64,000 nt of DNA from Populus alba (taxonomy: Eukaryota; Streptophyta; Magnoliopsida; Malpighiales; Salicaceae): assembly GCF_005239225.2 (NCBI RefSeq), contig NC_133290.1, positions 10,300,204 to 10,364,203 on the forward strand, given 5' to 3'. The translations under genes were made by a program, and so were the position numbers. Position 1 is the first letter of the stretch. Each line of letters begins with the position of its first letter. Of the stretch, positions 2,199 through 63,870 are shown piece after piece. Below the pieces are notes generated by a model. It saw only the letters and a program-made list of their open reading frames with translations, was not told the origin of the DNA and made no database searches.

Positions 2199-4653
2199 TG
2201 TCGCACCCGACATCGAGGCGGCCCACAAAATAATAATTCTCTTGAATTATGGAAAAAGAACCAATTTCCGGCATCCGGTTCTTTTAAGGAAAATGTCTTG
2301 TTTAAGGAGTCGCCACCTAGTATTATGGTCACTAGGAACCCTAACTGGTCAACAGAGATTCTATGACTCGGGATTGGTTACATAAAAGGGAAGATATTAT
2401 CACCCCTTAAAAACATTTTCTGCTAAGGCAGACTGCAATTGTTAGTTTTGTCTTAAATTGCTAAATGTTTATTAATTTATGCTATGATGATTTGTTTAAA
2501 TATTCCTGACTCTAGCGCCAGTGAATATTCGAGCTCGAATAATTCCAACTCTAGCATTGGTAAAAATTCATAGCTATAAAAAAAAAATCAGTATATTTTC
2601 TTCTCTTTTTTTTTATTCTGATATCAGTGAATAAATTTACAAAAATTGAATTTTCTAAGAAAAGAAAACTATACTTTTTTTTATGTTTGATTTTTTTTTC
2701 AAGGACCAAGCTTCGCAAGTGCACGCACAAACCGGTAAGAAGTGAATTAAATTTGCCTATGTACAGTACCCATGCAATTATAATTGCAAAGGAAAGGGAA
2801 ATGAAGAACTTACCTGTGCAGGAGGCGAAGTCGAAGACAGTGGCTTGCTTTGAATCCCTCGGTTTCTCCTCCCTCCTCTGATTCTTCTCCTCTTTCAACT
2901 TCCTTGGGTCGCCTGTTCTCTCATGTCTGTGTTTGTACTTCTTCGTTCGGCCCCCTGTGTTGTTCCTCCTATTTTGTTATCTGGTTTCCTCTATTCATCC
3001 GCTGGTTCTCTTAGTTTTCTTCCGTATGTTTTCCTCCCCTCTGTTAGTCTGCTGGTTCTCTCGGTTTTTCTTTCCATTTCCCTTCTTTTTTCCTTTGTTT
3101 TGGTCATCTATTGTGGTTCTCCTCTAGAGAGCTCAGGTTCTGGTGCAGTTGTTGCTGAAGATGGAGACCTGGCATACTCGGAGTGCTGGACCGAAGGAAG
3201 GAAGCTTGCTGTTGTGGTTGTGGTCCGCGGCTACTGAAAATAGCAGCTAACACACAGGAGATGAACATGCAGCTGTTTGTTTGCATTGCTGAAAGAGGAC
3301 CGTCAATTTGCGAGGGTCACGATGCTGTGGAGAACGAATGAAACAAAAGAAGCTGCGTTTGGTGGACTGCTGCAGAAACTGTCAAACCTGAGGAAGAAGC
3401 AGTTTGCACACTGGATGAGATGTTGTTGTTGACATGACGAAGAGCTGACGGTTTGATCAGCTGTGCATTGTAAGGAAGCATGCCCTTTCGGCTACCCTGG
3501 CTGGGAATGTCGTTGTTGATGGATGATTGTCAATTATGTAGTCTATGGGGGGAAGAGAAGACGAGGGTTTCTTCCGTTCTGGCGACACCGAGAGAAACAT
3601 GACGGTTCCATGTAAGGAGAAGTGAAAACACTATGCTTTTTTTAGTGTGTGAGATGAGGTGGCTGTGCACAATGATTTTCCCCGTGTGATTGCTCTTTTC
3701 TCGATGAGGAGATTGCAGCTCCTAGGGGTTGAGATTGAGAGTGAAAAGTGTCTGACGGGGGAAGAGATTGAGGCTGGAGAAGAAAAGCCCCCAAAAAAAG
3801 CCTAAGGGGGCGCAAAGCCTGGTATAGGGTTCGGTCCGCCCCCCTTTGTTTTTATCTTTTTTTTTCTGATGTGTTTTTACTCCTTCCTTTCTTTTTTCGT
3901 CCCTTGATTCCTTGTTTTCTCCAGCTTTATAGCCACAGCATTCCACCCGTTACCAGGTAACTCCAATTGACTGTTATGCAAGTAATGGTGCGGCCGGCAG
4001 CTGAAGAGTTTGAAGAAGATGAACAGTGCTGAGAAACTGGCCACCGTTTTTTTGGTGTTTAATGGTTATTTTTCATTTGGCCCTTGAACTTTTAAAAGTT
4101 TTTGTAATAAACCCTCGTTTAAATTGTAATTGGACCCCTTGCATTTCGACGTCATTTCAAAATGGTCCTTAGATTTTTAATTTTTGCAATTTAGACCCCA
4201 ATTAAACCTCAAACTTTTGATAATATCTTTCAATTAAGTCCCTGATTGGATTAAATTAAATTTAATTTCAAGCTTAATTAAGTCTCAAAACCCTTATTAA
4301 TTCTCCAATTCAAAATCCCTTTGATTGGTATGAATTTAAATAATTTCAACTTAATTAAGTCTAAAAAATTTTATCAATCATCCAATTAAACCCTTAATTG
4401 GATTTAAATAAATTAATTCCAAGCTTGATTAGATTAATTCCAAAGTTTAATTTAAACCCCAAAAACTTCCATTCATATTGCCCCTTAAACCCAAAATTTA
4501 AGCTTCATTCTTCATTTATTTCATTTTTGCTTGTTTTCTTCCTATCATCATTATTATTTTTTTCCATCAATTTTTTTATCCTTTTCAATAAATAAAATAA
4601 GTAATAATAATAATAATTAAAATAAAAATAGTCAAAAATTTAGGTTATAAACA
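2199..4653 (-). repeat. 3' LTR of element A (uninterrupted copy)
   Basis: 2455 bp. In minus sense it runs TGTTTATAACC...GGGTGCGACA. It contains a CAG|GTAAGT splice-donor-like site (2808-2816). It is the natural empty-site reference for both later insertions: GAGACCTGGCATACTC (3163-3178) is the intact target of element B, and GGGTCACGATGCTG is the intact target of the hAT element. Compared with the right LTR it carries many 1-2 base expansions of homopolymers, mainly in 3330-4650. Confidence 0.92.
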
Positions 4654-4960: not shown

Positions 4961-6285
4961 GAAAATGAGGGCTCAAAGGCGCACTCAAAAGGAAGCGAGG
5001 GCCCAGAGGCGCTCGAAAAGGAAATGAGGACTCAAAAGCCCTCGAAGAGAAAAGTGAGTGCTCAAAGGCGCTCGAAAAGAAAATGAGGACTCAAAAGCCC
5101 TCGAAGAGAAAAGTGAGTGCTCAAAGGCACTTGAAAAGGAAAACGAGTGCTCAAAGGCACTCCTAGAGGAAAGAGAGTGCTCAAAGGCACTCGAGGAGGA
5201 AGGTGAGTGCTCAAAGGCACTTGAAGGGGAAAGCGAGTGCTCAGAGGCACTAGTGCTCAAAGGCACTTGAAAAAGAAAACGAGTGCTCAAAGGCACTCCT
5301 AGAGGAAAGCGAGTGCTCAAAGGCACTCAAAAAGGAAAGCGAGCGCTCAAAGGTGGCTCGAAAAAAAGGAAAGCGGACTGCTCAAAGGCACTTCTCGAGA
5401 AGAAAATGAGGTGCTCAAGGCGCTCCAAGAAGAAAAATGAGTGCTCAAAGGCACTTGAAGGTGAAAGTGAGTGCTCAAAAGCACTCGAGGAGGAAGGTGA
5501 GTGCTCAAAGGCACTTGAAAAGGAAAGCGGGTGCTCAAAGGCACTTGAAGGGTAAAGCGAGTGCTCAGAGGCACTTGAAGGCGAAAGCGAGTGCTTAGAG
5601 GCACTTGAAGGGAAAAGCGAGTGCTCAGAGGCACTCGTGCTCAGAGGCACTTGAAGGGAAAAGCGAGTGCTCAGAGGCACTTGAAGGCGAAAGCGAGTGC
5701 TCAGAGGCACTCGTGCTCAAAGGCACTTGAAGGGAAAAGCGAGTGCTCAGAGGCACTGGTGCTCAAAGGCACTTGAAGGCGAAAGCGAGTGCTCAGAGGC
5801 ACTCGTGCTCAAAGGCACTTGAAGGGAAAAGCGAGTGCTCAGAGGCACTGGTGCTCAAAGGCACTTGAAGGCGAAAGCGAGTGCTCAGAGGCACTGGTGC
5901 TCAAAGGCACTTGAAGGGAAAAGCGAGTGCTCAGAGGCACTTGAAGAGGAAGGCGAGTGCTCAAAGGCACTCGAAGAGGAAAGCGAAGGCTCGGAGGCCT
6001 TCGAGGAGGAAGGCGAGTGCTCAAAGGCACTCGAAGAGAAGCGAAAAGCGCTCAAAGGCGCTCTAAGAGGAGGGCGAGGGCTCAGAGGCACTCGAAGAGG
6101 AAAGCTAGTGCTCAAAGGCACTTAAAGAGGAAAGCGAGGGCTCAGAGGCGCTCGAGAAGGAAGACGAGTGCTCAAAGGCACTCGAAAGGAAGGCAAGTGC
6201 TCAAAGGCACTCGAGGAGGATGGTGAGTGCTCAAAGGCATTCGAAGGGGGAAGTGAGGGCTCAAAGGCGCTCAAGAGAGGTGGAA
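4961..6285. repeat. 30-bp tandem array of hairpin units in element A
   Basis: About 40 copies of a 30-bp unit of the type GAGTGCTCAAAGGCACTC + 12 purine-rich bases. Most units hold a short inverted repeat (GTGC...GCAC, often extended to GAGTGC...GCACTC) around a 6-nt loop. From 5713 to about 5942 the period changes to 46 bp, with two alternating subtypes giving a 92-bp higher-order repeat (starts near 5713, 5759, 5805, 5851, 5897). Because 30 is a multiple of three, long periodic open frames occur on both strands (plus-strand ECSKALEEE-type peptides). I treat these as by-products. The array lies inside element A between gag and the 3' LTR. Confidence 0.93.
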
Positions 6286-8669: not shown

Positions 8670-9400
8670 CTAGCTATATGAATGATAAGTGCCTTGGCAA
8701 CGACCTTCAGTGAAACTTTTCTTCTCAGTCGGGTTAGCAATCTTACCTAACCCAATGGCTTGTTCAATCCTCTCAGCTATAACAACTAGGTCAGTAAAAT
8801 GTTGTGCAGAGCTTCTAACCAGGTACTCAAAGTATGGAGCTTTAAAGGTGTTGGAAAATAAATTGATCATCTCTTTTTCCAACATGGGAGGATTAACTTG
8901 TGCAGCTATCTCACTCCATCTCCGGGCGTATTCTCTTATGGACTCCTTGTTGTTCTTCTCCATAGCTTGCAAGCTTAACCGATCAGGGGCCACGTCTATA
9001 TTGAACTTATATTGCCTCATAAAGGCATCAACTAAATCTTTCCATTTTTTAACCTTGGTATTGTCCAACCGCATATACCAAGTGAGGGCAGCATCACTCA
9101 AGCTGTCTTGGAAGAAATGAATTAACAGTTTCTCATCATCAACCACCTTGGCCATTTTGTTGCAATATACTTTAAGATGAGTTATAGGGCATTGAGTTCC
9201 CGAATATTTAATGAATTCTGGCACCCTAAACTTCTTATGAATGACAACATTAGGTACCAAACACATATTAACAGCTTTCACTAAGTCACACAAATGGTTT
9301 CCCTCAACTAACCTTATCCTCTCTTTTAGGGCGGTCTATTTTTCCAAATCCTCTTCTTTCACCATCTTGCTCTTTTGAGATTCTTTCAAAGGGTCTCTCG
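8670..9400 (-). pseudogene. gag remnant of element A (Tat/Ogre-type)
   Basis: The open segment 9293-8670 encodes 207 residues that look like a plant Ty3/Gypsy Gag (retrotransposon gag domain). Recognisable blocks are ITHLKVYCNKMA, AALTWYMRLD, EYARRWSEIAAQV and EKEMINLFSNTFKAPYFEYL, the capsid-like order seen in Tat/Ogre elements. Gag builds the virus-like particle in the cytoplasm. The same frame continues upstream to about 9400 but is broken by a TAG near 9340, so the N-terminus is lost or non-functional. No zinc knuckle or protease follows. I call it a dead or partial gag; the superfamily is secure, the clade less so. Confidence 0.85.
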
Positions 9401-9759: not shown

Positions 9760-10721
9760 TGTCGCACCCGACATCGTGGCGGCCCACAAAATAATAATTC
9801 TCTTGAATTATGGAAAAAGAACCAATTTCCAGCATCCGGTTCTTTTAAGAAAAATGTCTTGTTTAAGGAGTCGCCACCTAGTATTATGGTCACTAGGAAC
9901 CCTAACTTATCAACAAAGATTCTATGACTCGGGATTGGTTACGTAAAAGGGAAGATATTATCACCCCTTAAACATTCTGCCTAAGGCAGACTGCATTGTT
10001 GGTTTTGTCTTAAAATGCTAAATGTTTATTAATTTATGCTATGATGATTTCTTTAAATATTCCTGACTCTGGCGCCAGTGAATATTCGAGCTCAAATAAT
10101 TCCAAATCTGGCGTTGGTAAAAATTCATAGCTATAAAAAAAATCAGTATATTTTCTTCTTTTTTTTATTCTGATATCAGTGAATAAATTTACAAAAATTG
10201 AATTTTCTAAGAAAAGAAAACTATACTTTTTTTTATGTTTGATTTTTTTTTCAAGGACCAAGCTTCGCAAGTGCATGCACAAACCGGTAAGAAGTGAATT
10301 AAATTTGCCTATGTACAGTACCCATGCAATTATAATTGTAAAGGAAAGGGAAATGAAGAACTTACCTGTGCAGGAGGCGAAGTCAAAGACAGTGGCTTGC
10401 TTTGAATCCCTCGGTTTCTCCTCCCTCCTCTGATTCTTCTCCTCTTTCAACTTCCTTGGGTCACCTGTTCTCTCATGTCTGTGTTTGTACTTCTTCGTTC
10501 GGCCCCCTGTGTTGTTCCTCCTGTTTTGTTATCTGGTTTCCTCTATTCATCCGCTGGTTCTCTTAGTTTTCTTCTGTATGTTTTCCTCCCCTCTGTTAGT
10601 CTGCTGGTTCTCTCGGTTTTCTTCTGTTTCCCTTCTTTCTCCTCTGTTTTGGTCATCTATTGTGGTTCTCCTCTAGAGAGCTTAGGTTCTGGTGCAGTTG
10701 TTGCTAAAGATGGAGACCTGG
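9760..10721 (-). repeat. 5' LTR of element A, segment 1 of 3
   Basis: Aligns to 2199-3174 of the left LTR. It ends in CCTGG (10717-10721), the left target duplication of element B. It contains the same CAG|GTAAGT motif (10360-10368, minus) as the left copy. Confidence 0.93.
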
Positions 10722-12297
10722 TGATTAGTACTTAAAAGTGCATGTTTATCAAGGTTTTATATCATCATTTTGCACTTGAAGTGTCAATAACTCCTTAACT
10801 AAAGCATGTTTTATAATAACAAGTTTGATATTATAAGATACCTTAATTTATGGTAAATGCTCATTTTAAATGCAGGACTATCACATAAATAAAAGGATTG
10901 ATTGATGAGTTTAAGCATTGAAAGTTAAAGGACAAAGAGATGGCCAAACTTAGAAAAGAGATGTCGGTGCAGTCCAAACCGGAACATTGCTCGGTAATTG
11001 GATCATATCTGGAGCTCTAGATTTCGGATTTAGGTCCACTTTATATGGATGGAAAGGTAAGACAAAAGCCTACAACTTTCATGAGGAGCCCAAGATTTGA
11101 AAAGGTCGTTTTGAAGTCCAAATTGAAGGAACAACGAAGAAGTCCGAAGCTGTCCTGCAGCCCAAACACTATTTAGTGTTCAGCCCATATCTTGAGTTCT
11201 AGAAGTCCAAATGACCTCATCTTTTTTTTTGTTGGAAAGCTGAGACAATTTCCTAGAACATTCTTGAGGATTCTGGGCAAATTATGATGTTAGCAATGAC
11301 GTCTTGTTCAGACAAGAAGATAAGGATTGTTACCAAGTCAAGATGTGGCCACCCACTTATCAATTAATTAACAAATCAATAGTTCCAAATTGTGGCCTAT
11401 AAAAGGAGGCACTTACCATGTATTGAGGCATCTTGGTGTTCAGATCAAGATCATGCTCTTGCTTTCTCTCTTTGTATTGCTTATGTCTTGCTTTCATTAA
11501 TATCAAGTTTATGCACTTCATTTCCTTTCCTTTGTCTAGTTAACTTCTTTCTCATTTATGTTCTTGTCTTGCTCATTTATGTTTCTTTCTTTTATTATGT
11601 CTAGCTAAGTTAATTATGTCAAGGTGAAATGGGTACACTAATGGTGTAAGAACAAGTATAATATAAACTTAACATGGACCTTAACGTTGGATACTAACAT
11701 GTTTTATATTTGTTATCTTGTTCACTTTAATACTTTGCTTTGTTAAATGGTTAATCTAGATTTATGTTGTGTAACACTTGGTACAACAAATACTTGGCAC
11801 TTTCATAGCCCATACTGTATGGTTTAACCGACACCTGAGCTATGAAAGGAACTTGATTTGTTGTTAACATAAGTTATAATCATGAATGCCTGCCAACATT
11901 TACAAGTATTAGCTTTATTCGAATAAGATAATTAATGTAATCATGTTAACAATTTATAATCTGATTGGAACCTCCTTTATGTGTGGTTTCCAATTGAGTA
12001 ATAAGAGTTTATATTATACTTGTTTGAAGTACCATTAGTGGATCCTCTAACCTTGACATTTGTTTTTATCATTGTTTAATCCTTACGTTAATCTTTTATC
12101 TCAAAGTTCTCATTAATTTCTTCATCTTCTGTTATTATTATTATTATCATTGTTATTATTATTATTATTTACATTCTGTTTATATTATATAATATATATC
12201 TTTGATCTTTTCATAAAGTCAGTATATAGGCTGGAAACCTGTGACCCGATCTTTAGATCATTCTCAGGTATAACAACGCCACGTACTGAGTATTATT

Positions 12298-12338
<41 letters not shown>

Positions 12339-12457
12339 CTTGTTATTTATAATTTATATAATTAACCTCTCTGTGGTTCGACCCCTGTCTTGTCGGGTTA
12401 TTTATTACTTCGACACTCCTGCACTTGGGAAAAGACATCAAGCTTTTGGTCGTGTCA
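10722..12457 (+). repeat. 5' LTR of element B
   Basis: 1736 bp, TGATTAGTACTTAAAAG...GGTCGTGTCA. It has a TATA box at 11398-11404 and a (TTG)n tract at 12299-12337. It differs from the 3' LTR by about five substitutions, one base in two homopolymers, and one TTG unit. Confidence 0.97.
11398..11404 (+). promoter_or_regulatory. TATA box of element B LTR
   Basis: TATAAAA in the context CCTATAAAAGGAGGC, identical in the 3' LTR (21497-21503). The likely start of genomic RNA is about 30 nt downstream. Confidence 0.75.
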
Positions 12458-12463
12458 AGTTTT

Positions 12464-12481
12464 TGGCGCCGTTGCCGGGGA
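12464..12481 (+). other. primer-binding site of element B (tRNA-Asp type)
   Basis: TGGCGCCGTTGCCGGGGA, 6 nt after the 5' LTR. This is the well-known tRNA-Asp-complementary site of Athila and related plant Gypsy elements. Confidence 0.92.
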
Positions 12482-12688
12482 GGTAAATTCTTGTATAAAT
12501 TATAATATTTAATTTATTTTCTCTTTTCACTTTTCATTTTATCTATTTTTGTTTCCTTTGTTTTGTTTTGTTTCTTTTTCTTCTATTTTCTTTTCTTGCT
12601 TTTATTCTCTTCTTACACGTGCATGAGAGTTTGGTCACGTACATTAAGTGGTAGACTTTGTAGGGTATCCTCATCATTTTCAGAAAAT

Positions 12689-13979
12689 ATGGCCGAAGAA
12701 GATAATCAATCACTTCATAATGAGAATAATGAGAATAACCGTATGAGAACACTTAGAGACCACATGAATCCCACAAGAACAAGTGCACCCTCATGCATAG
12801 TTTTCCCTCCTGATGCATCTCATTTTAATTTTAAGCCAGGCATTATTCAACTTTTACCATCTTTTCATGGCTTAGACTTAGAAAATCCATACTTGCATTT
12901 AAGGGAATTTGAGGAGGTCTGTAATACCTATAATGACTCAAATTGTAGCATGAACACCATTCGATTAAAGCTTTTTCCTTTTTCATTAAAAGATAAAGCT
13001 AAAACATGGCTACAAAATTTGAGACCAGGATCCATTCGTGCTTGGGATGATATGCAACAACAATTTTTAAAGAAGTTTTTTCCATCTCACAGAACAAACT
13101 CTTTCAAAAGACAAATCATCACTTTCACTCAAAAAGCCAGGAGAAACATTTTACCAATGTTGGGATAGGTATCGAGATTTGCTTAATACTTGCCCACATC
13201 ATGGTTTTGAAACATGGAGATTGGTTTCACATTTTTATGAGGGTTTAACACCTAGAGATAGGCAAATGGTTGAATTGATGTGCAATGGAACTTTTGAAGA
13301 TAAAGACCCTAATGAAGCAATGGAGTACCTAGACTTGCTAGCTGAAAATGCTTAAAATTGGGACACCACAGGTACTTATGAGGCACCAGGTAAAACTCAA
13401 CCTCATACATCTAGTGGGGGTATGCACAACCTTAGGGAAGATCATGACCTCCAAGCCAAGTTTGCATCTTTAGCTAGAAAAGTTGAGGCACTAGAATTAA
13501 AAAAGAGTGGTCAATTAAAATCTGTTCAAGACATTGTGTGTCAAATCTGTGAAACAAATGAGCATGCAACCAATGATTGTCCAACTTTGCCTTCTTTCAA
13601 GGAATGCCTCCATGAACAAGCCCATGCTTTAAACAGTTTCCAAAGACCCAACCATAACCCATACTCACAAACATATAACCCTGGTTGGAGAAATCACCCA
13701 AATTTTAGTTGGAAGAGTGATAGCAACAATGCACAAACTTCACATCCACCGTTTCAAGCACACCATAATTTCCAAAATTCTCATGGATATGCACCTCCTT
13801 ATGCTCCACCTCCTAGAAGAAATTTTGAGGAAACATTGCATGCATTCATTGAAAAGCAGGAGACAATCAACACTCAACTCGCTCAAAGCATGACCGATTT
13901 TAAAGATGCTCTTGCAAAATTAACATCTGCTCTCAGTTTCCAAGAGAAAGGTAAGTTTCCTTCTCAACCACAGCAAAAA
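12689..13979 (+). pseudogene. gag of element B (frameshifted)
   Basis: Starts at ATG 12689 (MAEEDNQ...). It contains a retrotransposon gag domain with the blocks LENPYLHLREFEEVC and KLFPFSLKDKAKTWLQ, then a CX2CX4HX4C zinc knuckle (CQICETNEHATNDC, about 13536-13577) that would bind RNA. The product would form cytoplasmic virus-like particles. Breaks: one extra A in the run 13131-13135 shifts the frame, TAA at 13353-13355 interrupts the continuation, and one extra A in 13975-13979 shifts it again before the link to pol. Everything between the breaks reads as normal Gag, so the damage is recent or artefactual. Confidence 0.9.
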
Positions 13980-14077
13980 TCCAAAGGGGCAATACAATGC
14001 AAATGCAAGTAGTTCTGGAAGCCAACACATGGATCAAGTCAAATCAGTCATCACTCTTCGTAGTGGTAAGGTTATTG

Positions 14078-15804
14078 AAAAAACCTATTCTTGAACCTTG
14101 TGAGAAAGATGATGAGTCTATCTCTGAGGGTAAGGAAGGGGTTGAACCTGAACATTGCAAAGAAAAGGCTGATTCCCCGCCAGCACTTCCATTTCCTCAT
14201 GCCATGATCAAACAAAGGAAAGTTAGTCACAACTCTGAAATCTTTGAAATTTTCAAACAGGTAAGGATCAATATACCTTTGTTGGATGCTATTAAACAGG
14301 TTCCTTCCTATGCTAAATTTTTGAAAGATCTGTGCACTGTGAAGAGAAAATTGAATGTGAAAAAGAAAGCATTTTTAGCCGAACAAGTAAGTGCCATTCT
14401 TCAGAACAATAATGCTTTGAAATATAAAGACCCTGGTTGTCCTACAATTTCTTGCTTTATTGGAGAACATAAAATTGAAAGAGCCTTACTTGATCTTGGA
14501 GCTAGTGTGAATTTACTTCCATATTCAGTTTTTCAAAGTCTCAATCTAGGTGAGTTAAAACCAACTTCTGTAACTCTTTTACTCGCCGACAGATCTGTAA
14601 AAGTGCCTAGAGGAATAATTGAAGATGTGTTGGTACAAGTTGATAAATTCATTTATCCTGTGGATTTTGTTGTCTTGGACACGCAACCTGTTGAAGCATG
14701 TAATTCAATTCCTGTCATTTTAGGACGTCCATTTCTTGCCACTTCTAATGCATTGATTAATTGTAGGAATGGACTGATGAAGCTATCATTTGGAAACATG
14801 ACATTGGAGATGAATATTTTCAACATTTACAAGCAACCTGGAGATGATAATGATTTACAGGAAGTGGACTTTATTGAAAAATTAGTTCATGATCAATTTC
14901 AAACCACTTCTAGTGAAACTGAGATTGATGAATCTGATGATTTGCAAATGGTCTACTTTCAGGAATCAAAGGCATGCAATTGGAGACCACAAATTGAAGA
15001 ATTGCCACCACGATCAATTGAGCCCATACCTTCAAGTGTTCAACCACCAAAACCTGAATTGAAGCCGTTACCATTTAATCTCAAATACTTATTTTTGGGA
15101 GAAAATGAAACTTTTCCGGTAATAATCTCTTCCAAACTTAATGCACATCAAGAAGGTAAGTTATTACAGACTCTGAAAATGCACAAAAATGCATTAGGAT
15201 GGACCATAGCTGACATAAAAGGAATTAGCCCTTTGATTTGCACACACAGGATTTATTTGGAGGAAAATGCTAAACCCTCTAGAGAAATGCAACGAAGGCT
15301 TAATCCTAATATGAAAGAAGTAGTGAAAAATGAAGTCATTAAGCTTCTAGATAATGGAATCATTTATCCTATTTCTGATAGCAAATGGGTAAGTCCTACC
15401 CAAGTTGTACCCAAAAAGTCTGGAGTCACTGTGATAACAAATGAGAAAAATGAGTTAATTCCAACTAGGACTGTTACGGGTTGGCGCATGTGCATTGACT
15501 ATAGGAAACTTAATTCAATGACTAGAAAAGATCATTTCCCTTTACCTTTCATGGACCAAATCCTAGAAAGAGTTGCAGGTCATGAATTTTATTGTTTCCT
15601 AGATGGTTATTCAGGTTACAATCAAATTGAAATTGCATTGGAAGATCAAGAGAAGACTACTTTCACATGTCCATTTGGTACTTTTGCATATCGAAGGATG
15701 CCTTTTGGATTATGTAATGCACCAGCCACGTTTCAAAGATGCATGCTTAGCATATTCAGTGATATGGTTGAACGTTTTCTTGAAATTTTTATGGATGATT
15801 TTTT
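14078..15804 (+). pseudogene. pol of element B: protease and reverse transcriptase start
   Basis: The open segment begins after an extra A in run 14078-14083. It holds an aspartic protease with active-site motif LLDLGAS (about 14485-14505; the DLGA form is usual in Athila-like proteases) and the flap/ILGRPFL region near 14740. Reverse transcriptase follows, with WRMCIDYRKLN (about 15483), FLDGYSGYNQI (about 15597), RRMPFGLCNAPATFQ (about 15694) and the catalytic FMDD (about 15788). The segment ends where an extra T in 15799-15804 breaks the frame two residues after the catalytic aspartates. Confidence 0.92.
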
Positions 15805-16430
15805 CTGTTTTTGGTGATTCATTTGATGATTGTTTGACTAACTTAGAAAAGGTTTTGAGCAGGTGTGAAGAGAAGAATCTTGTACTGAATTGGGAAAAAT
15901 GTCACTTTATGGTAACAAACGGCATCGTACTTGGTCACATTGTTTCATCGAAAGGAATTGAGGTTGACAAATCTAAAATCGAGTTAATTGCCAACTTACC
16001 AACACCAAAATCTGTTAAAGATGTTAGATCATTCTTAGGACATGCTGGTTTTTACAGAAGGTTCATCAAAGATTTTAGTGTAATATCTAAGCCCTTGAGT
16101 AACCTTCTAACAAAGGATAATATTTTTGAATGGACTGAACATTGTGAGGAAGCCTTTGTTAAACTTAAAAACTTGCTTACTTCTGCTCCTGTCATTCAAC
16201 CTCCTGATTGGTCATTACCTTTTGAAATAATGTGTGACGCTAGTGATTATGTCGTGGGTGCTGTCTTGGGACAAAGGAAAGATAAGAAACCTTATGTGAT
16301 TTACTATGCAAGTAAAACTTTAAATAGTGCTCAAATGAATTACACTACCACTGAAAAAGAATTACTTGCAGTAGTATTTGCATGTGACAAGTTCAGATCT
16401 TATCTTGTTGGCTCACCTGTTATTGTTTTT
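15805..16430 (+). pseudogene. pol of element B: RT end and RNase H
   Basis: Continues RT after the 15799-15804 shift with the connection motif NWEKCHFMV..GIVLGH (about 15888-15940) and RSFLGHAGFYRRFI (about 16027). RNase H starts at FEIMCDASDYVVGAVLGQ (about 16222) and has the usual [21 protein letters not shown] block. It stops because of an extra T in the run 16426-16431, inside the last RNase H block. Confidence 0.92.
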
Positions 16431-17913
16431 TAGTGATCATGCAGCATTGAAATATCTTCTCTCTAAGAAAGATTCTAAGGCTAGATTGGTGCGGTGGATT
16501 TTGTTACTTCAAGAATTTGATATCACAATCAAAGACAAGAAAGGCACCGAAAATGTTGTCGCGGATCATTTGTCAAGATTGACAACCGATTCGAGATCTG
16601 ACATTACACCAATCGATGACTACTTTCCTGATGAATCTTTATTTTCTGTCTCTACGATGCCTTGGTTTGCTAATATTGTTAATTTTCTTGTTTCAGGACA
16701 ATTGCCAGCTCATTGGAGTACCCAAGACAAAAGAAAGTTCTTGAACGAAGTAAAGAACTTTTATTGGGATGACCCTTATTTATTCAAATATTGTCCTGAT
16801 CAAATATTTCGAAGATGCATTCCTGACAATGAGGTAAGTAGTGTCATTAAATTTTGTCATTCTGAGGCATGTGGGGGTCATTTCTCATCAAGAAAGACAA
16901 CTGCAAAAATCTTACAAAGTGGATTCTATTGGCCCACCATGTTCAAAGACTCACATGCATTCTGTAAGATTTGTGAAAATTGTCAAAAGTTGGGATCTAT
17001 TTCGAAACGTCACATGATGCCTTTAAATCCTATTCTTGTCATTGAGATCTTTGATTGTTGGGGTATAGATTTCATGGGTCCATTTCCTCCATCATTTGGT
17101 TTCTTGTACATATTGGTCGCAGTAGATTATGTATCAAAATGGATAGAGGCAATTCCAAGTCGAACCAATGATCACAAAATAGTGATAAAGTTTTTGAAAG
17201 AAAACATTTTAAGTCGATTTGGAATCCCTCGAGCCATGATAAGTGACGGTGGAACACACTTTTGCAACAAGCCATTTGAGTCTTTAATGAAGAAATATGG
17301 AATCACACATAAAGTTGCCACCCCTTATCACCCTCAGACAAGTGGACAAGTAGAGCTTGCTAATAGGGAGATCAAACAGATCTTGGAGAAAACAGTGAAC
17401 CCTAATAGGAAAGACTGGTCTTTAAGACTTAATGATGCACTTTGGGCTTATCGAACTGCTTATAAAACATCATTAGGTATGTCACCTTATAGACTAGTCT
17501 ATGGAAAACCTTGTCACTTGCCTGTGGAAATTGAACATAAAGCTTATTGGGCTATTAAAGCTTTCAATTCAAGCCTTGATGATGCTAGTCAGCTGCGAAA
17601 ATTGCAAATAAATGAGCTTGAGGAAATAAGACATGATGCATATGACAATTCAAAAATTCATAAAGCAAGAAGTAAAGAGTTTCATGACAAGAAAATACTG
17701 AGAAAAACATTCAATGTTGGTCAAAAAGTCTTGCTTTATAATTCTCGACTCCATTTATTTCCTGGAAAACTAAGAACAAGATGGAGCGGTCCTTTTATTG
17801 TGAAACATGTGTATCCATATGGGGCCTGTGATATTGAGAATCCAAAGAATGGCAATGTTTTCAAGGTAAATGGGCATCGTTTGAAAGTTTATTTTGACAA
17901 TTTTTTCGGTTGA
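16431..17913 (+). pseudogene. pol of element B: RNase H end and integrase
   Basis: Opens with the SDHAALKYL end of RNase H, then an HHCC zinc-binding domain (about 16855-16995: CHSEACGGH...CKICENC). The integrase core has all catalytic residues: Asp at 17068-17070 (GIDFMG), Asp at 17245-17247 (ISDGG) and Glu at 17353-17355 (VELANRE), the last two 35 residues apart as in DD35E. The C-terminus ([13 protein letters not shown]) lacks a chromodomain, consistent with a non-chromovirus. This 494-codon stretch has no internal break and ends at TGA 17911-17913. Confidence 0.93.
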
Positions 17914-18151
17914 AAATGACTCTATTGAATTGAGTGATCCTGTATATAAAAGATTGATTCTTTTTCTCACATTGTTTTGTGTTTTGTTGTTTTGCTAGTC
18001 TCTCTTTCACCCCGGTCAAATGGCGGATAACGGTACTCCGTGACTTAAGTCGGTTCTTTCAGTTTCCCAAATAACTGATATCTGTATATGTTTGTATAAT
18101 TCTTAGCTCTTTCTTCCTTCTTTGAATCGCTTCTCTAATTCTCTTTTGAAA

Positions 18152-18700
18152 ATGGACACCACTCTTGAAAAGTTGAAAAGGTATTTTCCCGCTTTGCCTC
18201 CACATGCGATTAATAAAATTTACCGTGCTAGGTGTGCAAGATTGAGGTTGTTAATGAATCATGGAATTCCTGAAGATATCCGTTGGGTAATTGAAGCAAA
18301 GGTTCGATTATCAGGTGAGTCATCCAATTCTTTCATTTCACACATGCCTGGAACAGGTAAAAGCACTTTTGCAAAGAAACGTCGTGCAAAACGACTGAAA
18401 GTCTGTCATCGATGTGCCAGATGGACTTGTAATACAACATGTCGTTCTTTAGGAATGGTATCTGTAAACCGTGAAGATAAGATACAATTCATTAAGGATG
18501 GCCTGAGTAAGGGGTCTTTAGATAATCTTTTGTTGACCCTTGAGACGCATCCTAGTGGAGATGTGCATCGCGTAATTCATGATTTATGGCCACAATTCCA
18601 TAAAGAACATGATCGACTTAGTCTTGGGAATCTGACTAAAAAAGACCCTGTTTGCCAGTTTTTAAGAAAACTGGATGGGAAGCCTATCCCCGACCCATAG
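18152..18700 (+). CDS. unknown ORF downstream of integrase, Cys4 motif
   Basis: 182 residues from ATG 18152 (MDTTLEKLKRYF...); the frame is open from 18122 but without an earlier ATG. I do not recognise the protein. Visible features are a basic N-terminal half, the stretch GTGKSTFAKKRRAKRLK (18345-18400), and immediately after it VCHRCARWTCNTTC, a CX2CX4CX3C motif that could bind zinc. The GTGKST string resembles a P-loop, but no NTPase fold follows, so I give it no weight. It lies 239 bp after integrase and 250 bp before the LOG-like ORF, on the same strand. Athila and Tat elements often have extra or env-like ORFs here; I see no signal peptide or membrane segment, so it is not an evident envelope protein. 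Confidence 0.75.
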   Translation: MDTTLEKLKRYFPALPPHAINKIYRARCARLRLLMNHGIPEDIRWVIEAKVRLSGESSNSFISHMPGTGKSTFAKKRRAKRLKVCHRCARWTCNTTCRSLGMVSVNREDKIQFIKDGLSKGSLDNLLLTLETHPSGDVHRVIHDLWPQFHKEHDRLSLGNLTKKDPVCQFLRKLDGKPIPDP

Positions 18701-18877
18701 AGGGCGTTTAAGCCGTTCTTGGACGTAAAACCAAGGGAAGATGTGAGCCACAATCACAACTACCTGTACATACATGCTTTTTCAAAATAAATAATTAATA
18801 AAGAGAGAAAGAGAGAGTTTGTGAGACTACAGCTGGCCTACATATAGGTGGTATGATTGCATTTTCACTTTTTCATC

Positions 18878-18884
18878 TATAAAT
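18878..18884 (+). promoter_or_regulatory. possible TATA box for LOG-like ORF
   Basis: TATAAAT 66 bp upstream of the LOG-like ATG, followed by a CT-rich leader (TTCTTCTCTTCCTTCCCTTC), as in many plant genes. This could be a private promoter. It could equally be chance in AT-rich DNA, with expression from LTR-driven RNA. Confidence 0.4.
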
Positions 18885-18949
18885 TCTTCTCTTCCTTCCC
18901 TTCATTTCTACTCATCCCATATATTCATCAAATATAGAAGTGTGTAGAA

Positions 18950-19603
18950 ATGGCAGGTTCCTCAAGTCATCATATAAGAAATATTTGTGTTTTCGATGGA
19001 TCCAGTTCTGGGAAAGAAAAAGAGTTTTTAGAATCAGCAAATCATCTTGGTCGGGTACTAGCTGAGAGAAAGATTCATTTAGTGTATGGGGGAGGCAGCC
19101 TTGGGTTAATGGGAGGTGTGTCAATGGCTGTATTTTTAGGAGGCAGTCAAGTTTTGGGGGTTGTCCCCAAAGCTTTAGCAACTGGGGACATCATTGGAAA
19201 AACAATTGGAGAGGAACTACAGGTCCCAACAATGTCTGACCGACTGAATACCATGTTTAACCATGCTGATGCCTTCATTGCCTTACCAGGTGGTCTGGGC
19301 ACATTGGAAGAGATCTTTCATATTTCATCTTGGGCCCAACTGCACATTCACCATAAACCTATAGGTTTGTTAAATGTTAATGGTTTTTATGATAAGTTGC
19401 TGTCTTTCCTTGATCAAGCTGTGGAACAGGAATTTCTAACATCTTCGGCACGACGAATCATAATCTCTGCTGCTACTGCTGAACAATTGATTGACCAACT
19501 ACAATCTTTCATCCCTGTCATTGATCCCTGCATGAGTCGTCTAGATTGGTCAACTAAGGAAAGCCGTAAAAAGCTTAGATTAGATTTGAGCCTTCATCTG
19601 TGA
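18950..19603 (+). CDS. LOG: LOG-like cytokinin riboside 5'-monophosphate phosphoribohydrolase in retrotransposon
   Basis: 217 residues from ATG 18950, no intron. LOG enzymes cut the ribose phosphate from cytokinin nucleotides to release active bases. Family marks are a Rossmann start (RNICVFDGSSSGK, residues 10-22; the usual Cys is Asp), VYGGGSLGLMG (45-55), Arg98 and PGGLGTLEE (113-121), the lysine decarboxylase-like/LOG signature with its Glu, then WAQL.IH.KPIGLLNV.GFYD and ARRIIISA.TAEQL. Length matches LOG proteins. The RKAEM-type block after Arg98 reads RLNTM, so activity is uncertain. Host LOG genes have several introns; this frame has none, suggesting capture from spliced RNA. It sits inside element B between integrase and the polypurine tract, with matching LTRs and target duplication outside it. 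Confidence 0.9.
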   Translation: MAGSSSHHIRNICVFDGSSSGKEKEFLESANHLGRVLAERKIHLVYGGGSLGLMGGVSMAVFLGGSQVLGVVPKALATGDIIGKTIGEELQVPTMSDRLNTMFNHADAFIALPGGLGTLEEIFHISSWAQLHIHHKPIGLLNVNGFYDKLLSFLDQAVEQEFLTSSARRIIISAATAEQLIDQLQSFIPVIDPCMSRLDWSTKESRKKLRLDLSLHL

Positions 19604-20243
19604 AACCTTGTGTCTTTTGGTTTTATTAATAGCATATTATTTTGTTTTGTTACTTCTTATGTTTGTTTAAGTGTGTTTCAGGTTTGTCATTGTTCGCTGT
19701 TTCAGGTGATGTCTTTTATACTCTATCTTTCTACCTTCGAACATTGAGGACAATGTCTCGTTTTGGTTGGGGGGAGAGGGTAGTAGTTTAAAAAAAAAAA
19801 TACTAACTTGCTAACTGTTTTTGCTATTATTAAAACCATTTGACAAAATTGTTATTAGGATGGCAGAGTATGGAATCAATTTTATTGACTCTAGAGACGC
19901 ATCTTAGTAAGTTTCATTACCAAGGTCTATCATAATACTTCTTGAAATATTCAGGTTTACAAACTCTCACATTGTTATCACTTGATTCTGCTTCTATACT
20001 CATTTAACAAGTATTATTAAACCTTCATTTTCACACACACACTTTAACATATGATTGTGGGTTGCACATTGGATTATTACATTAATTATGTTCTTTTGTT
20101 GAAGGTAACAACTAAGGGAAAAGGATAGTATATAATTTGCAAAGAAAAAAAAAGAGAAAAAAAAAAAAAAAAAAAAGAAGATAGTATTGATGATAATAAA
20201 ACGTGGATAAGTTTGGTTTCGTAGCCTCCCTAACCTAAGCAAT

Positions 20244-20480
20244 TAAGCCCGAAGGGGTGTTTTAACACCTAATACCCTAAAGTCAACTGACTTGGGAGCT
20301 ATTGGCCCAAAGCTTGTTACATGGGTTAAGGAGAAAAGCTTAAGGGAATCAAACATTGCACTATCTACGTATCAGTATCTGCAACCCGAGTTGTTAAGCT
20401 CGTAGGGGTGTCTCAACACCTAATGCCCTAAGACCAACTGGTCTGGGAGTCATTAGCCTAAAACTCGTTACATGGGTTAA
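20244..20480 (+). repeat. two 86-bp direct repeats with internal dyad
   Basis: 20244-20329 and 20395-20480, about 80 percent identical. Both read TAAGC.CG.AGGGGTGT.T.AACACCTAAT.CCCTAA and end in GTTACATGGGTTAA. Each contains a GGTGT...ACACC inverted repeat. Confidence 0.85.
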
Positions 20481-20809
20481 AGATACATTGTGTTTTAAGT
20501 TGTATGTGTATATAAATAAAAAAAAAAGAAGAAAAAAAATCCCAACCCAAGGAAGTTCACCTTAAACATTTGAACATAATATTGTTTTCTTCCAACAAAA
20601 GCCCCATCATCTATGTTTTCATTGAGCACACAAAAAGAAGGTTTATTAATATCTTGTTTACGAAGTATGAAGCAGGAATATAAATTTAATGAGAGTTTGT
20701 TTATCTGGATAGATTAATGGAAGTTGAATGATGAATGCCTTGCTTTGTGGAACTTGCAAATTGTTTCTCTATTTTAACGCTTTAGATTACTAGGGACTAG
20801 TAATAAGCT

Positions 20810-20821
20810 GGTTGGGGGGTG
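20810..20821 (+). other. polypurine tract of element B
   Basis: GGTTGGGGGGTG directly before the 3' LTR start at 20822, the expected plus-strand priming site. Confidence 0.75.
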
Positions 20822-22395
20822 TGATTAGTACTTAAAAGTGCATGTTTATCAAGGTTTTATATCATCATTTTGCACTTGAAGTGTCAATAACTCCTTAACT
20901 AAAGCATGTTTTATAATAACAAGTTTGATATTATAAGATACCTTAATTTATGGTAAATGCTCATTTTAAATGCAGGACTATCACATAAATAAAAGGATTG
21001 ATTGATGAGTTTAAGCATTGAAAGTTAAAGGACAAAGAGATGGCCAAACTTAGAAAAGAGATGTCGGTGCAGTCCAAACCAGAACATTGCTCGGTAATTG
21101 GATCATATCTGGAGCTCTAGATTTCGGATTTAGGTCCACTTTATATGGATGGAAAGGTAAGACAAAAGCCTACAACTTTCATGAGGAGCCCAAGATTTGA
21201 AAAGGTCGTTTTGAAGTCCAAATTGAAGGAACAACGAAGAAGTCCGAAGCTGTCCTGCAGCCCAAACACTATTTAGTGTTCAGCCCATATCTTGAGTTCT
21301 AGAAGTCCAAATGACCTCATCTTTTTTTTGTTGGAAAGCTGAGACAATTTCCTAGAACATTCTTGAGGATTCTGGGCAAATTATGATGTTAGCAATGACG
21401 TCTTGTTCAGACAAGAAGATAAGGATTGTCACCAAGTCAAGATGTGGCCACCCACTTATCAATTAATTAACAAATCAATAGTTCCAAATTGTGGCCTATA
21501 AAAGGAGGCACTTACCATGTATTGAGGCATCTTGGTGTTCAGATCAAGATCATGCTCTTGCTTTCTCTCTTTGTATTGCTTATGTCTTGCTTTCATTAAT
21601 ATCAAGTTTATGCACTTCATTTCCTTTCCTTTGTCTAGTTAACTTCTTTCTCATTTATGTTCTTGTCTTGCTCATTTATGTTTCTTTCTTTTATTATGTC
21701 TAGCTAAGTTAATTATGTCAAGGTGAAAAGGGTACACTAATGGTGTAAGAACAAGTATAATATAAACTTAACATGGACCTTAACGTTGGATACTAACATG
21801 TTTTATATTTGTTATCTTGTTCACTTTAATACTTTGCTTGTTAAATGGTTAATCTAGATTTATGTTGTGTAACACTTGGTACAACAAATACTTGGCACTT
21901 TCATAGCCCATACTGTATGGTTTAACCGACACCTGAGCTATGAAAGGAACTTGATTTGTTGTTAACATAAGTTATAATCATGAATGCCTGCCAACATTTA
22001 CAAGTATTAGCTTTATTCGAATAAGATAATTAATGTAATCATGTTAACAATTTATAATCTGATTGGAACCTCCTTTATGTGTGGTTTCCAATTGAGTAAT
22101 AAGAGTTTATATTATACTTGTTTGAAGTACCATTAGTGGATCCTCTAACCTTGACATTTGTTTTTATCATTGTTTAATCCTTACGTTAATCTTTTATCTC
22201 AAAGTTCTCATTAATTTCTTCATCTTCTGTTATTATTATTATTATCATTGTTATTATTATTATTATTTACATTCTGTTTATATTATATAATATATATCTT
22301 TGATCTTTTCATAAAGTCAGTATATAGGCTGGAAACCTGTGACCCGATCTTTAGATCATTCTCAGGTATAACAACGCCACGTACTGAGTATTATT

Positions 22396-22433
<38 letters not shown>

Positions 22434-22552
22434 CTTGTTATTTATAATTTATATAATTAACCTCTCTGTGGTTCGACCCCGGTCTTGCCGGGTTATTTAT
22501 TACTTCGACACTCCTGCACTTGGGAAAAGACATCAAGCTTTTGGTCGTGTCA
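20822..22552 (+). repeat. 3' LTR of element B
   Basis: 1731 bp, nearly identical to 10722-12457. It is followed by the CCTGG duplication (22553-22557) and then the rest of the LTR of element A. TATA box at 21497-21503; (TTG)n at 22397-22432. Confidence 0.97.
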
Positions 22553-22708
22553 CCTGGCATACTCGGAGTGCTGGACCGAAGGAAGGAAGCTTGCTGCTGT
22601 GGCTGTGGTCCGCGGCTACTGAAAATAGCAGCTAACACACAGGAGATGAACATGCAGCTGTTTGTTTGCATTGCTGAAAGAGGACCGTCAATTTGCGTGG
22701 GTCACGAT
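22553..22708 (-). repeat. 5' LTR of element A, segment 2 of 3
   Basis: Resumes the A LTR at the point matching 3170-3326 of the left copy. It begins with the CCTGG duplication and ends with GTCACGAT (22701-22708), the left duplication of the hAT element. Confidence 0.93.
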
Positions 22709-23869: not shown

Positions 23870-25156
23870 GTCACGATGCTGTGGAGAACGAATGAAACAA
23901 AAGAAGTTGCGCTGGTGGACTGCTGGCAGAACTGTCAACCTGAGGAAGAAGTAGTTTGTACACTGGATGAGATGTTGTTGTTGACGTGACGAAGAGCTGA
24001 CGGTTTGATCAGCTGTGCATTGTAAGGAAGCATGCCCTTTCGGCTGCCCTGGCTGGGAATGTCGTTGTTGATGGATGATTGTCAATTATGTAGTCTATGG
24101 GGGGAAGAGAAGACGAGGGTTTCTCCTGGCGACACCGGAGAAAACATGACGGTGGAAGGAGAAGGTGAAACACTATGCTTCTTTTTTTTGTGTGTGAGGA
24201 TGAGGTGGCTGTGCATAATGATTTTCCCCGTGTGATGTGCTCTTTCTCGACGAGGAGATGCAGCTCCTAGGGATTGAGATTGAGGAGTGAAAAGTGTCTG
24301 ACGGGGGAAGAGATTGAGGCTGGAGAAGAAAAGCCAAAAAAAGCCTGAAGGGGGCGGCAGCTGGTATAGGGTTCGCCGCCCCCTTTGTTTTATCTTTTTT
24401 TTTTCTGATGTGTTTTCTCCTCCCTTTTTTTTTTTCGTCCCCTGATTCCTTGTTTTCTCCAGCTTTATAGCCACTGCATTCCACCGTTACCAGGTAATCA
24501 ATTGACTGTTATTGCAGGAGTAATGGTGGCGGCCGGCAGCTGAAGAGTTTGAAGAAGATGAACAGTGCTGAGAAACGGCACCGTTTTTTGGTGTTTAATG
24601 GTTATTTTCATTTTGGCCCTTGAATTTTTAAAAGTTTTGTAATTAAACCATGGGTAAATTGTAATTAGACCCTGCATTTTGACGCCATTTTCAAAATGGT
24701 CCTTGGATTTTAATTTTTGCAATTTAGACCCCAATTAAACCTCAAACTTTGATATCTTTTCAATTAAGTCCCTGATTGGATTAATTAAATTAATTTCAAG
24801 CTTAATTAAGTCTCAAAACTTATTAATTCTCCAATTAAATCCTTGATTGGATGAATTAAATTAATTTCAAGCTTAATTAAGTCTAAAAATTTATCAATTA
24901 TCCAATTAAACCCTTAATTGGATTAAATAAATTAATTCCAAGCTTGATTAGATTAATTCTAAAGTTTAATTAAACCCCAAAACTTCCATTCATATTGCCC
25001 TTAACCCAAAATTTAATTCATTCTTCATTTATTTCATTTTACTTTTTTTTTCATCATCATTATTATTTTTTTTCATCAATTTTTTTATCCTTTTCAATAA
25101 ATAAAATAATATAATAATAATAATAAAATAAAATAGTCAAAAATTTGGTTATAACA
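23870..25156 (-). repeat. 5' LTR of element A, segment 3 of 3
   Basis: Matches 3319-4653 of the left LTR and ends ...GGTTATAACA, followed by the target duplication ATGGG (25157-25161). It is shorter than the left copy because it lacks many single-base expansions in homopolymers. Confidence 0.92.
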
Positions 25157-32779: not shown

Positions 32780-32880
32780 GTTTGAAGTTATATTTACAGT
32801 CATTGGGTTTAGCACATTAGTGTGAAGAAAAATTTGAATGTTACAAGGGACTGAAATTGGCTCACTTTGATTTGACAAAA

Positions 32881-33474
32881 ATGACAGAAATTTTTGGATA
32901 TACGGCTTGCAGACAGTTATCCCAGATGTTTTTGGCTGTGCTCTTTTTTCATAGTTCTGAATATGTTTTAGTTGCTGCTATTCATGGGAGATCAAGTGTT
33001 AATCTTAGTTCACTCTTGATCAGCAAAGCTTATGTGTTTGCAATGATGTTCGCGTTGCTTGAGTATGTTGTTGAGATTGCTTTATTTCCTGGGTTGAAGG
33101 AATATTGGTGGGTAAGCAATTTAGGTCTTGTGATGGTTATAATTGGGGAGATTACTCGGAAGCTAGCCATTGTAACAGCTGGACAAGCGTTCACACATCT
33201 GATTAAGGTTAATCATGAGGAGCAACATAATTTGATAACTCATGGAGTGTATAGGTTTGTACGTCATCCATCATACACTGGTTTCTTAATCTGGTCAGTT
33301 GGAACTCAGATAATGTTATGCAATCCTATATCGACAATTGGGTTCGCTATTGTTGTCTGGCGCTTCTTTTCTCAACGGATACCATATGAAGAGTTTTTCT
33401 TGAGGCAGTTTTTTGGGTCGGAGTATGTGGAATATGCTTTGAAAACTCCTTCTGGAGTTCCATTTGTGAAGTGA
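32881..33474 (+). CDS. ICMT: protein-S-isoprenylcysteine O-methyltransferase
   Basis: 197 residues, uninterrupted. Methylates the carboxyl group of the C-terminal isoprenylated cysteine of CAAX proteins (ROP GTPases and others) at the ER membrane; in plants it acts in abscisic acid signalling. Start MTEIFGYTACRQ at 32881 matches the N-terminus of plant ICMTs; an in-frame ATG at 32857 would add 8 residues. The protein is mostly hydrophobic, with several membrane segments. The C-terminal half carries the conserved core: GQAFTHLI..N.EEQHNLITHGVYRFVRHPSYTGF (the RHPSY cofactor-binding block) and RIPYEEFFLRQFFG.EYVEYA. Length agrees with Arabidopsis ICMTA/B. Base use and frame are normal. It is followed by an AT-rich 3' region and then the dead peroxidase on the opposite strand. 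Confidence 0.95.
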   Translation: MTEIFGYTACRQLSQMFLAVLFFHSSEYVLVAAIHGRSSVNLSSLLISKAYVFAMMFALLEYVVEIALFPGLKEYWWVSNLGLVMVIIGEITRKLAIVTAGQAFTHLIKVNHEEQHNLITHGVYRFVRHPSYTGFLIWSVGTQIMLCNPISTIGFAIVVWRFFSQRIPYEEFFLRQFFGSEYVEYALKTPSGVPFVK

Positions 33475-63800: not shown

Positions 63801-63870
63801 TAGGTGGCAATGTGGACTAATTGAGTCATCATTGGTGACTTTACTAGAAAGTTGTTACCATCCGATCTCA
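60828..63870. other. intergenic, no gene recognised
   Basis: AT-rich DNA with poly(T) tracts (62224-62310). A further piece of the AT-rich dispersed family is possible at 62515-62590. No gene is supportable. Confidence 0.5.

What the first reader, a model, noticed from the sequence alone, without database searches (positions are those of the whole stretch)
18950..19603. Retrotransposon carries an intact, intronless LOG (cytokinin-activating enzyme) homologue
Seen: a full 217-codon frame with VYGGGSLGLMG and PGGLGTLEE lies between integrase (ends 17913) and the polypurine tract (20810) of an element with matching LTRs and a CCTGG duplication, so it is cargo, not a flanking gene. Known: plant LOG enzymes release active cytokinin from nucleotides, and host LOG genes have several introns. 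Inference: the gene was captured from spliced RNA and is copied with the element, perhaps letting it influence meristem or cell division state. The frame is clean while gag-pol has six lesions. I know of no established description of an Athila-like element with LOG cargo, but uncharacterised LOG-like genes in plant databases could be such copies.
Basis: partly seen in the sequence, partly recalled or inferred. Interest (0 to 1): 0.92.

Follow-up and report, generated by a model that had tools for sequence, protein, structure and literature searches.

The report
Retrotransposon carrying plant hormone enzyme gene
A highly repeated plant retrotransposon carries two extra genes, one resembling the enzyme that switches on the growth hormone cytokinin and one resembling a plant-virus protein, and both show signs of being kept in working form by selection, although some copies have since dropped the enzyme gene.

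Summary
Confirmed: a clean 217-codon LOG frame (18950-19603) lies inside an 11.8-kb LTR element (10722-22552, CCTGG duplication). The source genome holds at least 150 copies of the frame at 94-100% identity, 139 of 150 scored without a stop. Variants shared between copies are depleted in amino-acid changes in both ORFs (omega about 0.3 LOG, 0.4 CRP). The LOG has the LOG fold and catalytic motif but branches outside the plant LOG3/LOG8 clade, so capture from an ordinary spliced host LOG mRNA is not shown. LOG is dispensable: at least 40 near-identical copies share one 774-bp deletion of it. LOG-family domains in LTR elements of Citrus and Populus are already in print, so the cargo itself is known; the CRP partner, the selection evidence and the LOG-loss lineage were not found in the searches made. 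Cytokinin activity and silencing suppression remain inference.

The parts
10722..12457 (+). 5' LTR, TG...CA; preceded by target duplication CCTGG at 10717-10721
12464..12481 (+). primer binding site TGGCGCCGTTGCCGGGGA; its reverse complement ends in CCA like a tRNA 3' end (tRNA-Asp, recalled)
12563..13168 (+). gag (Retrotrans_gag), frame broken downstream
13997..17913 (+). pol: protease, RT, RNase H, integrase, in three broken frames
18152..18700 (+). CRP ORF, 182 codons from the ATG: carlavirus-type cysteine-rich nucleic-acid-binding protein (basic KKRRAKRLK stretch followed by CHRC...C...C)
   Evidence: Pfam PF05515 E 2.6e-7 and PF01623 E 7.7e-6, both above gathering score; same in 6 of 6 further copies scanned
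18877..18886 (+). TATA-like CTATAAATTC 73 bases before the LOG ATG, possible internal promoter (inference)
   Evidence: unchanged in 31 of 33 copies; no expression data
18950..19603 (+). LOG ORF, 217 codons, LOG fold, PGGxGTxxE motif intact
19604..20821 (+). 3' non-coding region ending in the polypurine tract
20822..22552 (+). 3' LTR; followed by CCTGG at 22553-22557

Best explanation
The window copy is a recent, pol-broken member of a high-copy Athila-like Ty3/gypsy family whose standing gene set is gag-pol plus two sense accessory genes before the 3' LTR: a carlavirus-type zinc-finger protein (CRP) and a LOG enzyme. Shown: presence in many copies, LOG fold and motif, purifying selection on both, interleaving of the 3' gene block between full-length and RT/INT-deleted forms (read as recombination), and a lineage that has deleted LOG. 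Inferred: LOG protein made from the element releases active cytokinin (or hydrolyses a related nucleotide monophosphate) in cells where the element is transcribed, keeping those cells dividing or permissive so that more copies reach the germ line; CRP blunts RNA silencing or binds nucleic acid. Because both products can act in trans, copies that lost pol or LOG can be carried by relatives.
For: At least 150 LOG copies at 94-100% identity, 139 of 150 scored (of 1782 candidates) without a stop (my count of the listing); CRP at least 150 copies (150 scored of 1735). 47 of 47 distinct copies found through LOG carry CRP sequence, some partial or broken. Selection with a mutation spectrum taken from the element's own non-coding DNA: LOG, 53 copies, shared variants S 43 N 34 against 72.8% N expected, omega* 0.30 (bootstrap 0.20-0.45), P 1.1e-7; CRP, 47 copies, S 24 N 26, omega* 0.39 (0.23-0.66), falling to 0.13 for variants in 5 or more copies; CRP singletons 0.83 (P 0.26). 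Foldseek: the top ten hits are plant and bacterial LOG-family structures, TM(target) 0.88-0.92. E121 is the position that is E in 5zbj and A in the AMP complex 5zbk. Five LTR pairs have K 0.0018-0.0053, so recent insertions.
Against: At least 40 copies at 99-100% share one LOG deletion and amplified without it; 16 of those 40 lie beside CRP hits. LOG copies were mostly ascertained by similarity to LOG, which lowers apparent N: LOG singletons are also below 1 (0.67, P 0.03; 0.51 in the first 33 copies and 0.24 in its deleted-pol subset). The less biased subset (N-terminal 94 residues of 20 copies) gives shared omega* 0.34 with P only 0.011. A and D forms interleave in the 3' tree, so selection after loss of pol cannot be shown separately; shared variants private to one form are few and mixed (LOG in D S 4 N 1, in A S 1 N 1; CRP in D S 0 N 1, in A S 0 N 7). 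No expression, enzyme or silencing data. CRP fold unresolved (pLDDT 40.7).
Confidence: 0.6

Rival explanations
1. LOG serves the element's own nucleotide metabolism: it hydrolyses AMP-like monophosphates inside or near the particle and has no cytokinin role.
For: The matched families (TIGR00730, Lysine_decarbox) are broader than cytokinin LOGs; the score against the cytokinin-specific model NF058542 is 111.9, below its cut-off of 300. The residues after R98 differ from the MHxRK pattern of the other LOGs aligned.
Against: The closest solved relatives by sequence are Arabidopsis LOG-family proteins with about 50% identity; the motif residues are intact.
Confidence: 0.2
2. Passenger: LOG was fixed in one master copy and simply rides along; the low omega comes from sampling the most similar copies and from a short history.
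For: Ascertainment by LOG similarity; LOG singletons also fall below 1 (0.67; 0.51 and 0.24), a sign of that bias; LOG lost in a thriving lineage; 2 of 10 copies found through CRP have a frameshifted LOG.
Against: The shared-variant signal is strong (P 1.1e-7) and persists, more weakly, in the N-terminal part of copies picked by another part of LOG or by CRP (omega* 0.34, P 0.011). CRP, not used to pick most of its copies, shows a clear contrast between shared and private variants.
Confidence: 0.15
3. The LOG is a deep plant LOG-like paralogue captured from a host gene outside the LOG1-LOG8 clade, or a bacterial-type LOG acquired horizontally; the function is whatever that source gene does.
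For: It branches outside the LOG3/LOG8/host clade (98% support for that clade), and is 50% identical to both AtLOG3 and a Nitrospirales LOG.
Against: Only nine sequences in the tree; long branch; no plant protein database could be searched. This concerns origin and is compatible with the best explanation.
Confidence: 0.35

Closest known systems
LTR-retrotransposon consensuses with a YgdH/LOG domain in Citrus and Populus trichocarpa (PMC9289625, abstract and section 12 read; it cites Steinbauerova et al. 2011, not held, whose abstract I recall as naming two Athila-like elements similar to LOGL4)
   Same: LOG-family domain inside plant LTR elements, one of the species a poplar; probably the same or a sister family (inference)
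   Different: That section reports the domain hit only: no partner CRP, no selection test, no deletion lineages
Athila elements of Arabidopsis (PMC2410132, abstract and section 8 read)
   Same: pol-less copies that keep intact gag or env-like ORFs under purifying selection, and recombination between lineages
   Different: Their extra ORF is env-like; here the 3' ORFs are a CRP and a LOG
Orchid Gypsy elements with an AlkB-type RNA demethylase (PMC9289625, abstract and section 12 read)
   Same: Cellular-type enzyme fixed as an extra ORF in a Gypsy lineage
   Different: Different enzyme, reported active in vitro; no virus-like partner named in what I read
Carlavirus cysteine-rich proteins (Pfam PF05515, PF01623)
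   Same: Basic stretch followed by a compact cysteine cluster, over both gathering scores
   Different: Encoded by an LTR element; no virus sequence could be aligned here, only the Pfam models
Plant LOG cytokinin-activating enzymes (At2g37210 2a33, At5g11950 1ydh; the names LOG3 and LOG8 are recalled)
   Same: Fold, PGGxGTxxE, R98 and E121
   Different: 46-50% identity, outside their clade, intronless, MSDRLNTM instead of MHQRKAEM, longer C-terminal tail

Membership tests
Type-I LOG phosphoribohydrolase | PGGxGTxxE motif with the catalytic Glu and conserved Arg | tested here: met
   PGGLGTLEE at 113-121; R98 and E121 invariant with three bacterial LOGs; the E position is the one changed to A in 5zbk
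Type-I LOG phosphoribohydrolase | LOG Rossmann fold | tested here: met
   AF2 mean pLDDT 74.6, pTM 0.76 on a 4-row alignment; Foldseek best 2a33, 1ydh, 5zbj, TM(target) 0.88-0.92 for the top ten
Type-I LOG phosphoribohydrolase | NCBI cytokinin-specific equivalog NF058542 above cut-off | tested here: not met
   111.9 bits against a cut-off of 300; TIGR00730 is met (167.9 against 96.35)
Type-I LOG phosphoribohydrolase | releases free cytokinin from its riboside 5'-monophosphate | not testable with these tools
   needs an enzyme assay
Plant LOG1-LOG8 clade | groups with plant LOGs in a tree | tested here: not met
   outside the clade AtLOG3+AtLOG8+host LOG (98% support), 9 sequences
Athila lineage of Ty3/gypsy | long LTRs, gag-PR-RT-RH-INT order, PBS complementary to tRNA-Asp, sense extra ORF before the 3' LTR | tested here: met
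   the tRNA-Asp assignment and the list of features are recalled
Athila lineage of Ty3/gypsy | RT phylogeny | not tested
   no reference RT set was built
Carlavirus-type CRP | Pfam Viral_NABP / Carla_C4 above gathering score | tested here: met
Carlavirus-type CRP | close relatives among viral contigs | tested here: inconclusive
   two scans of IMG/VR confirmed none; the scan needs exact short words, and I do not know how well carlaviruses are held there
Carlavirus-type CRP | silencing suppression or gene activation in plants | not testable with these tools
   recalled function of viral CRPs; the paper I looked for is not held

The most novel reading that the evidence does not exclude
The element family runs a two-gene host-manipulation cassette assembled from different sources: a virus-related CRP that weakens RNA silencing and a LOG that raises active cytokinin in the cells where it is transcribed, shared in trans by a guild of full-length, pol-less and LOG-less copies. 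A transposon would then act on plant hormone balance much as a gall-forming pathogen does.
Probability: 0.3. Interest if true: 0.87.

Novelty: new variant of a known kind. Interest (0 to 1): 0.62.

Why it matters
[quoted passage not shown] Here a recognisable hormone enzyme and a recognisable virus-type protein are standing, selected sense parts of a large family. That makes a direct test possible of whether a transposon profits from changing host hormone or silencing state, with natural LOG-plus and LOG-minus lineages as controls. It also warns that 'LOG genes' in gene lists of this and related genomes may be transposon genes.

Tried and rejected
Flanking host gene or chance ORF: rejected (LTRs, target duplication, at least 150 copies). 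Unique late insertion or single-copy capture: rejected.

Claim that pol-less (D) copies keep LOG under their own selection: looked true at first but dropped, because A and D copies interleave in the 3' tree. In one search I had put L023 with A; it is a D copy in a nested insertion and was moved.

Reading-frame counts for integrase (0 of 10 intact) are not used: the window copy that served as frame reference has its own indels.

Host ancestor of the LOG: not found. Host exons are hidden behind more than a thousand candidates in a search that scores only 150; one host LOG exon surfaced and its locus was read. CRP structure: unusable model. The PDB search found no relative of CRP. IMG/VR scans with P0002, P0001 and a CRP piece confirmed nothing; the single genome-contig scan gave three bacterial LOGs. 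The sigma-70 promoter scan is for bacteria and was ignored.

Counts of the D junction and of the CRP-less junction, Pfam-wide censuses (PF03641, PF05515) and a second host-exon query could not be run: the genome search was busy each time (the same happened to queries that were in part answered later). Paper searches failed.

Full report
What is there. The frame at 18950-19603 is a complete 217-codon LOG-family protein (Pfam Lysine_decarbox 1.7e-38, TIGR00730 above cut-off). It sits between integrase (ends 17913) and the 3' LTR of an element bounded by LTRs 10722-12457 and 20822-22552, 99.4% identical, with TG...CA ends and a CCTGG duplication. The primer binding site at 12464-12481 and the gene order fit the Athila lineage; the tRNA-Asp assignment is recalled and no RT tree was made. 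Five base differences between the window's LTRs give K 0.0029; four other LTR pairs give 0.0018-0.0053, so insertions are recent.

A second cargo gene. These families are the cysteine-rich nucleic-acid-binding proteins of carlaviruses; their role as silencing suppressors or activators is recalled, not taken from a call. The PDB search found no relative, the AF2 model is useless, and two viral-contig scans confirmed none. The direction of exchange between virus and element is open.

Copy number and linkage. The source genome has 416 Mb in 96 contigs, C1 to C19 being 13-55 Mb each; that is Populus-like, recalled. The LOG protein has 150 scored matches of 1782 first-look candidates, all 94-100% identical, 139 of 150 without a stop by my count of the listing. 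CRP has 150 scored of 1735 candidates. Of 47 distinct copies found through LOG (the window included), 47 carry CRP sequence next to it, some truncated or frameshifted. LOG is open in 44 of 53 full-length copies and CRP in 32 of 47.

Copies found through CRP. I read 10 of the 150: L069-L073 (the five best, one of them the window itself) and L074-L078 (five of an every-8th series of 18, chosen partly because they were absent from the LOG lists, hence biased towards LOG loss). LOG is open in 5 of 10 (one of these, L078, matched to residue 206 only), frameshifted in 2 and missing in 3. In L071 a 774-bp stretch (18792-19565 in window terms) is gone and the last codons of LOG remain, so this is a loss, not an ancestral state. 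L076 is in the junction list below; L074 is inferred from spacing alone. A 140-base probe across the junction gave 40 matches, all full length at 99-100%; 40 of 2168 candidates were scored, so this is a lower bound. Of these 40, 16 lie beside CRP hits (compared by eye). A LOG-less lineage has therefore amplified well.

Pol-less forms. Of 10 loci examined, 7 share a deletion of window 14966-16526 (RT and RNase H); 6 of these also lack about 16993-17717 (most of integrase), with ends agreeing to a few bases, and one (L028) lacks 17009-18507, which removes much of CRP; L063 shares that last break. Classified by integrase sequence, 15 of 33 copies are full-type and 18 are deleted (with L023 corrected by me). 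In a tree of the 3' non-coding parts (30 copies) the two kinds interleave, as expected if packaged RNAs recombine. Arabidopsis Athila elements show the same habit: pol-less copies with selected ORFs, and recombination between lineages (PMC2410132, abstract and section 8 read).

Selection. Counting variants against a neutral expectation built from the element's own non-coding mutation spectrum, LOG variants shared by two or more of 53 copies are S 43, N 34 (72.8% N expected; omega* 0.30, bootstrap 0.20-0.45, P 1.1e-7); those in five or more, S 14, N 9 (0.24). CRP: shared S 24, N 26 (0.39; 0.23-0.66), in five or more S 17, N 6 (0.13); singletons S 25, N 58 (0.83, P 0.26). Integrase, 10 copies: shared 0.17, singletons 0.44. 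For CRP this is what a gene needed during replication looks like once copies decay after insertion. Caution for LOG: most copies were picked by LOG similarity, and its singletons show that bias (0.67, P 0.03; in the first 33 copies 0.51, and 0.24 in the pol-deleted subset). In the N-terminal 94 residues of 20 copies (14 picked with a C-terminal AtLOG3 piece, 6 through CRP) shared variants give 0.34 with P 0.011. Shared variants private to one form are few and mixed (LOG in D S 4 N 1, in A S 1 N 1; CRP in D S 0 N 1, in A S 0 N 7), so no subfamily-specific claim is made. Pairwise NG86 omegas (0.17 INT, 10 copies; 0.25 CRP, 30; 0.29 LOG, 33) agree.

Is it a LOG enzyme? The AF2 model (pLDDT 74.6) finds plant and bacterial LOG structures first. 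R98 and E121 are in place; E121 corresponds to the residue changed in the AMP-bound 5zbk. But the cytokinin-specific NCBI model is not reached, and the protein lies outside the clade of AtLOG3, AtLOG8 and a host LOG (98% support, nine sequences), with 50% identity to AtLOG3 and also to a Nitrospirales LOG. The host LOG read on C2 is split into about seven exons by protein matching (no cDNA), and the element's frame runs through without interruption. Intron loss fits capture from RNA, but the parent gene was not found, and a bacterial-type source is not excluded.

Expression. A TATA-like CTATAAATTC 73 bases before the LOG start is unchanged in 31 of 33 copies, in a spacer that is conserved overall. 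An internal promoter is possible; nothing here tests it.

Prior work. PMC9289625 (section 12 read) reports the YgdH domain, which it says is found in the LONELY GUY family, in LTR-retrotransposon consensuses of two Citrus species and, with a looser filter, P. trichocarpa, in line with Steinbauerova et al. 2011 (not held; I recall its abstract naming two Athila-like elements similar to LOGL4). So LOG cargo is known. Answered searches: carlavirus plus cysteine-rich protein plus LTR retrotransposon gave two papers (listing and abstract starts only); silencing suppressor plus LTR retrotransposon plus env-like gave none; lysine decarboxylase plus retrotransposon plus Athila gave none; LONELY GUY plus LTR retrotransposon gave two, of which I opened one; a mixed search gave 254, of which 40 were listed (titles and abstract starts) and none of those 40 held 'carlavirus'. 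In PMC11963269 and PMC6317226 only term searches were made: no hit for decarboxylase, cytokinin or carlavirus in either. The library holds open-licence papers only, so an earlier report of the CRP partner elsewhere is not excluded.

Verdict. Real, selected, family-wide cargo; LOG cargo itself already noted in print; apparently new are the virus-type CRP partner, the selection evidence and the natural LOG-loss lineage. The hormone and silencing mechanism is a well-motivated inference at about three chances in ten for its strongest form.

Noticed in passing
18152-18700: Carlavirus-type cysteine-rich protein ORF in a plant LTR element, under purifying selection; it became part of the finding.
   Followed up: yes
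L071, L076 (and L074 by spacing): LOG-less lineage with one shared 774-bp deletion, at least 40 copies.
   Followed up: partly
L028 and L063: Another derivative that lost RT, most of integrase and much of CRP with one shared break (17008 to 18508 in window terms) but keeps LOG; in L063 the pol and CRP remnants form one open frame (3-824).
   Followed up: no
L023: A pol-less copy with another stretch of the same family (integrase to 3' region, 87%) in opposite orientation beside it, read as a nested insertion.
   Followed up: no
2199-2900 and 9760-10452: A second LTR-like pair (88-98% in pieces) with a gag frame on the minus strand (8670-9293): another Ty3-type element just upstream.
   Followed up: partly
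22552-22708 and 23937-24124: The 3' flank of the element matches 3167-3323 and 3385-3572 at 98%, so the element sits in a repeat that also occurs further left.
   Followed up: no
5011-6178: Minisatellite-like array with a 30-base period (with 16- and 46-base steps).
   Followed up: no
20243-20332 and 20394-20483: Two diverged direct repeats (about 80%) in the 3' non-coding region, at least one of them reported in 9 of the 10 loci.
   Followed up: no
63849-63987: A piece 84% identical to pol 15062-15200 at the right end of the window: a related element may run out of the window.
   Followed up: no
32857-33474: ICMT-type (isoprenylcysteine methyltransferase) frame of 205 codons; a peroxidase frame at 35931-36509 on the minus strand.
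   Followed up: partly
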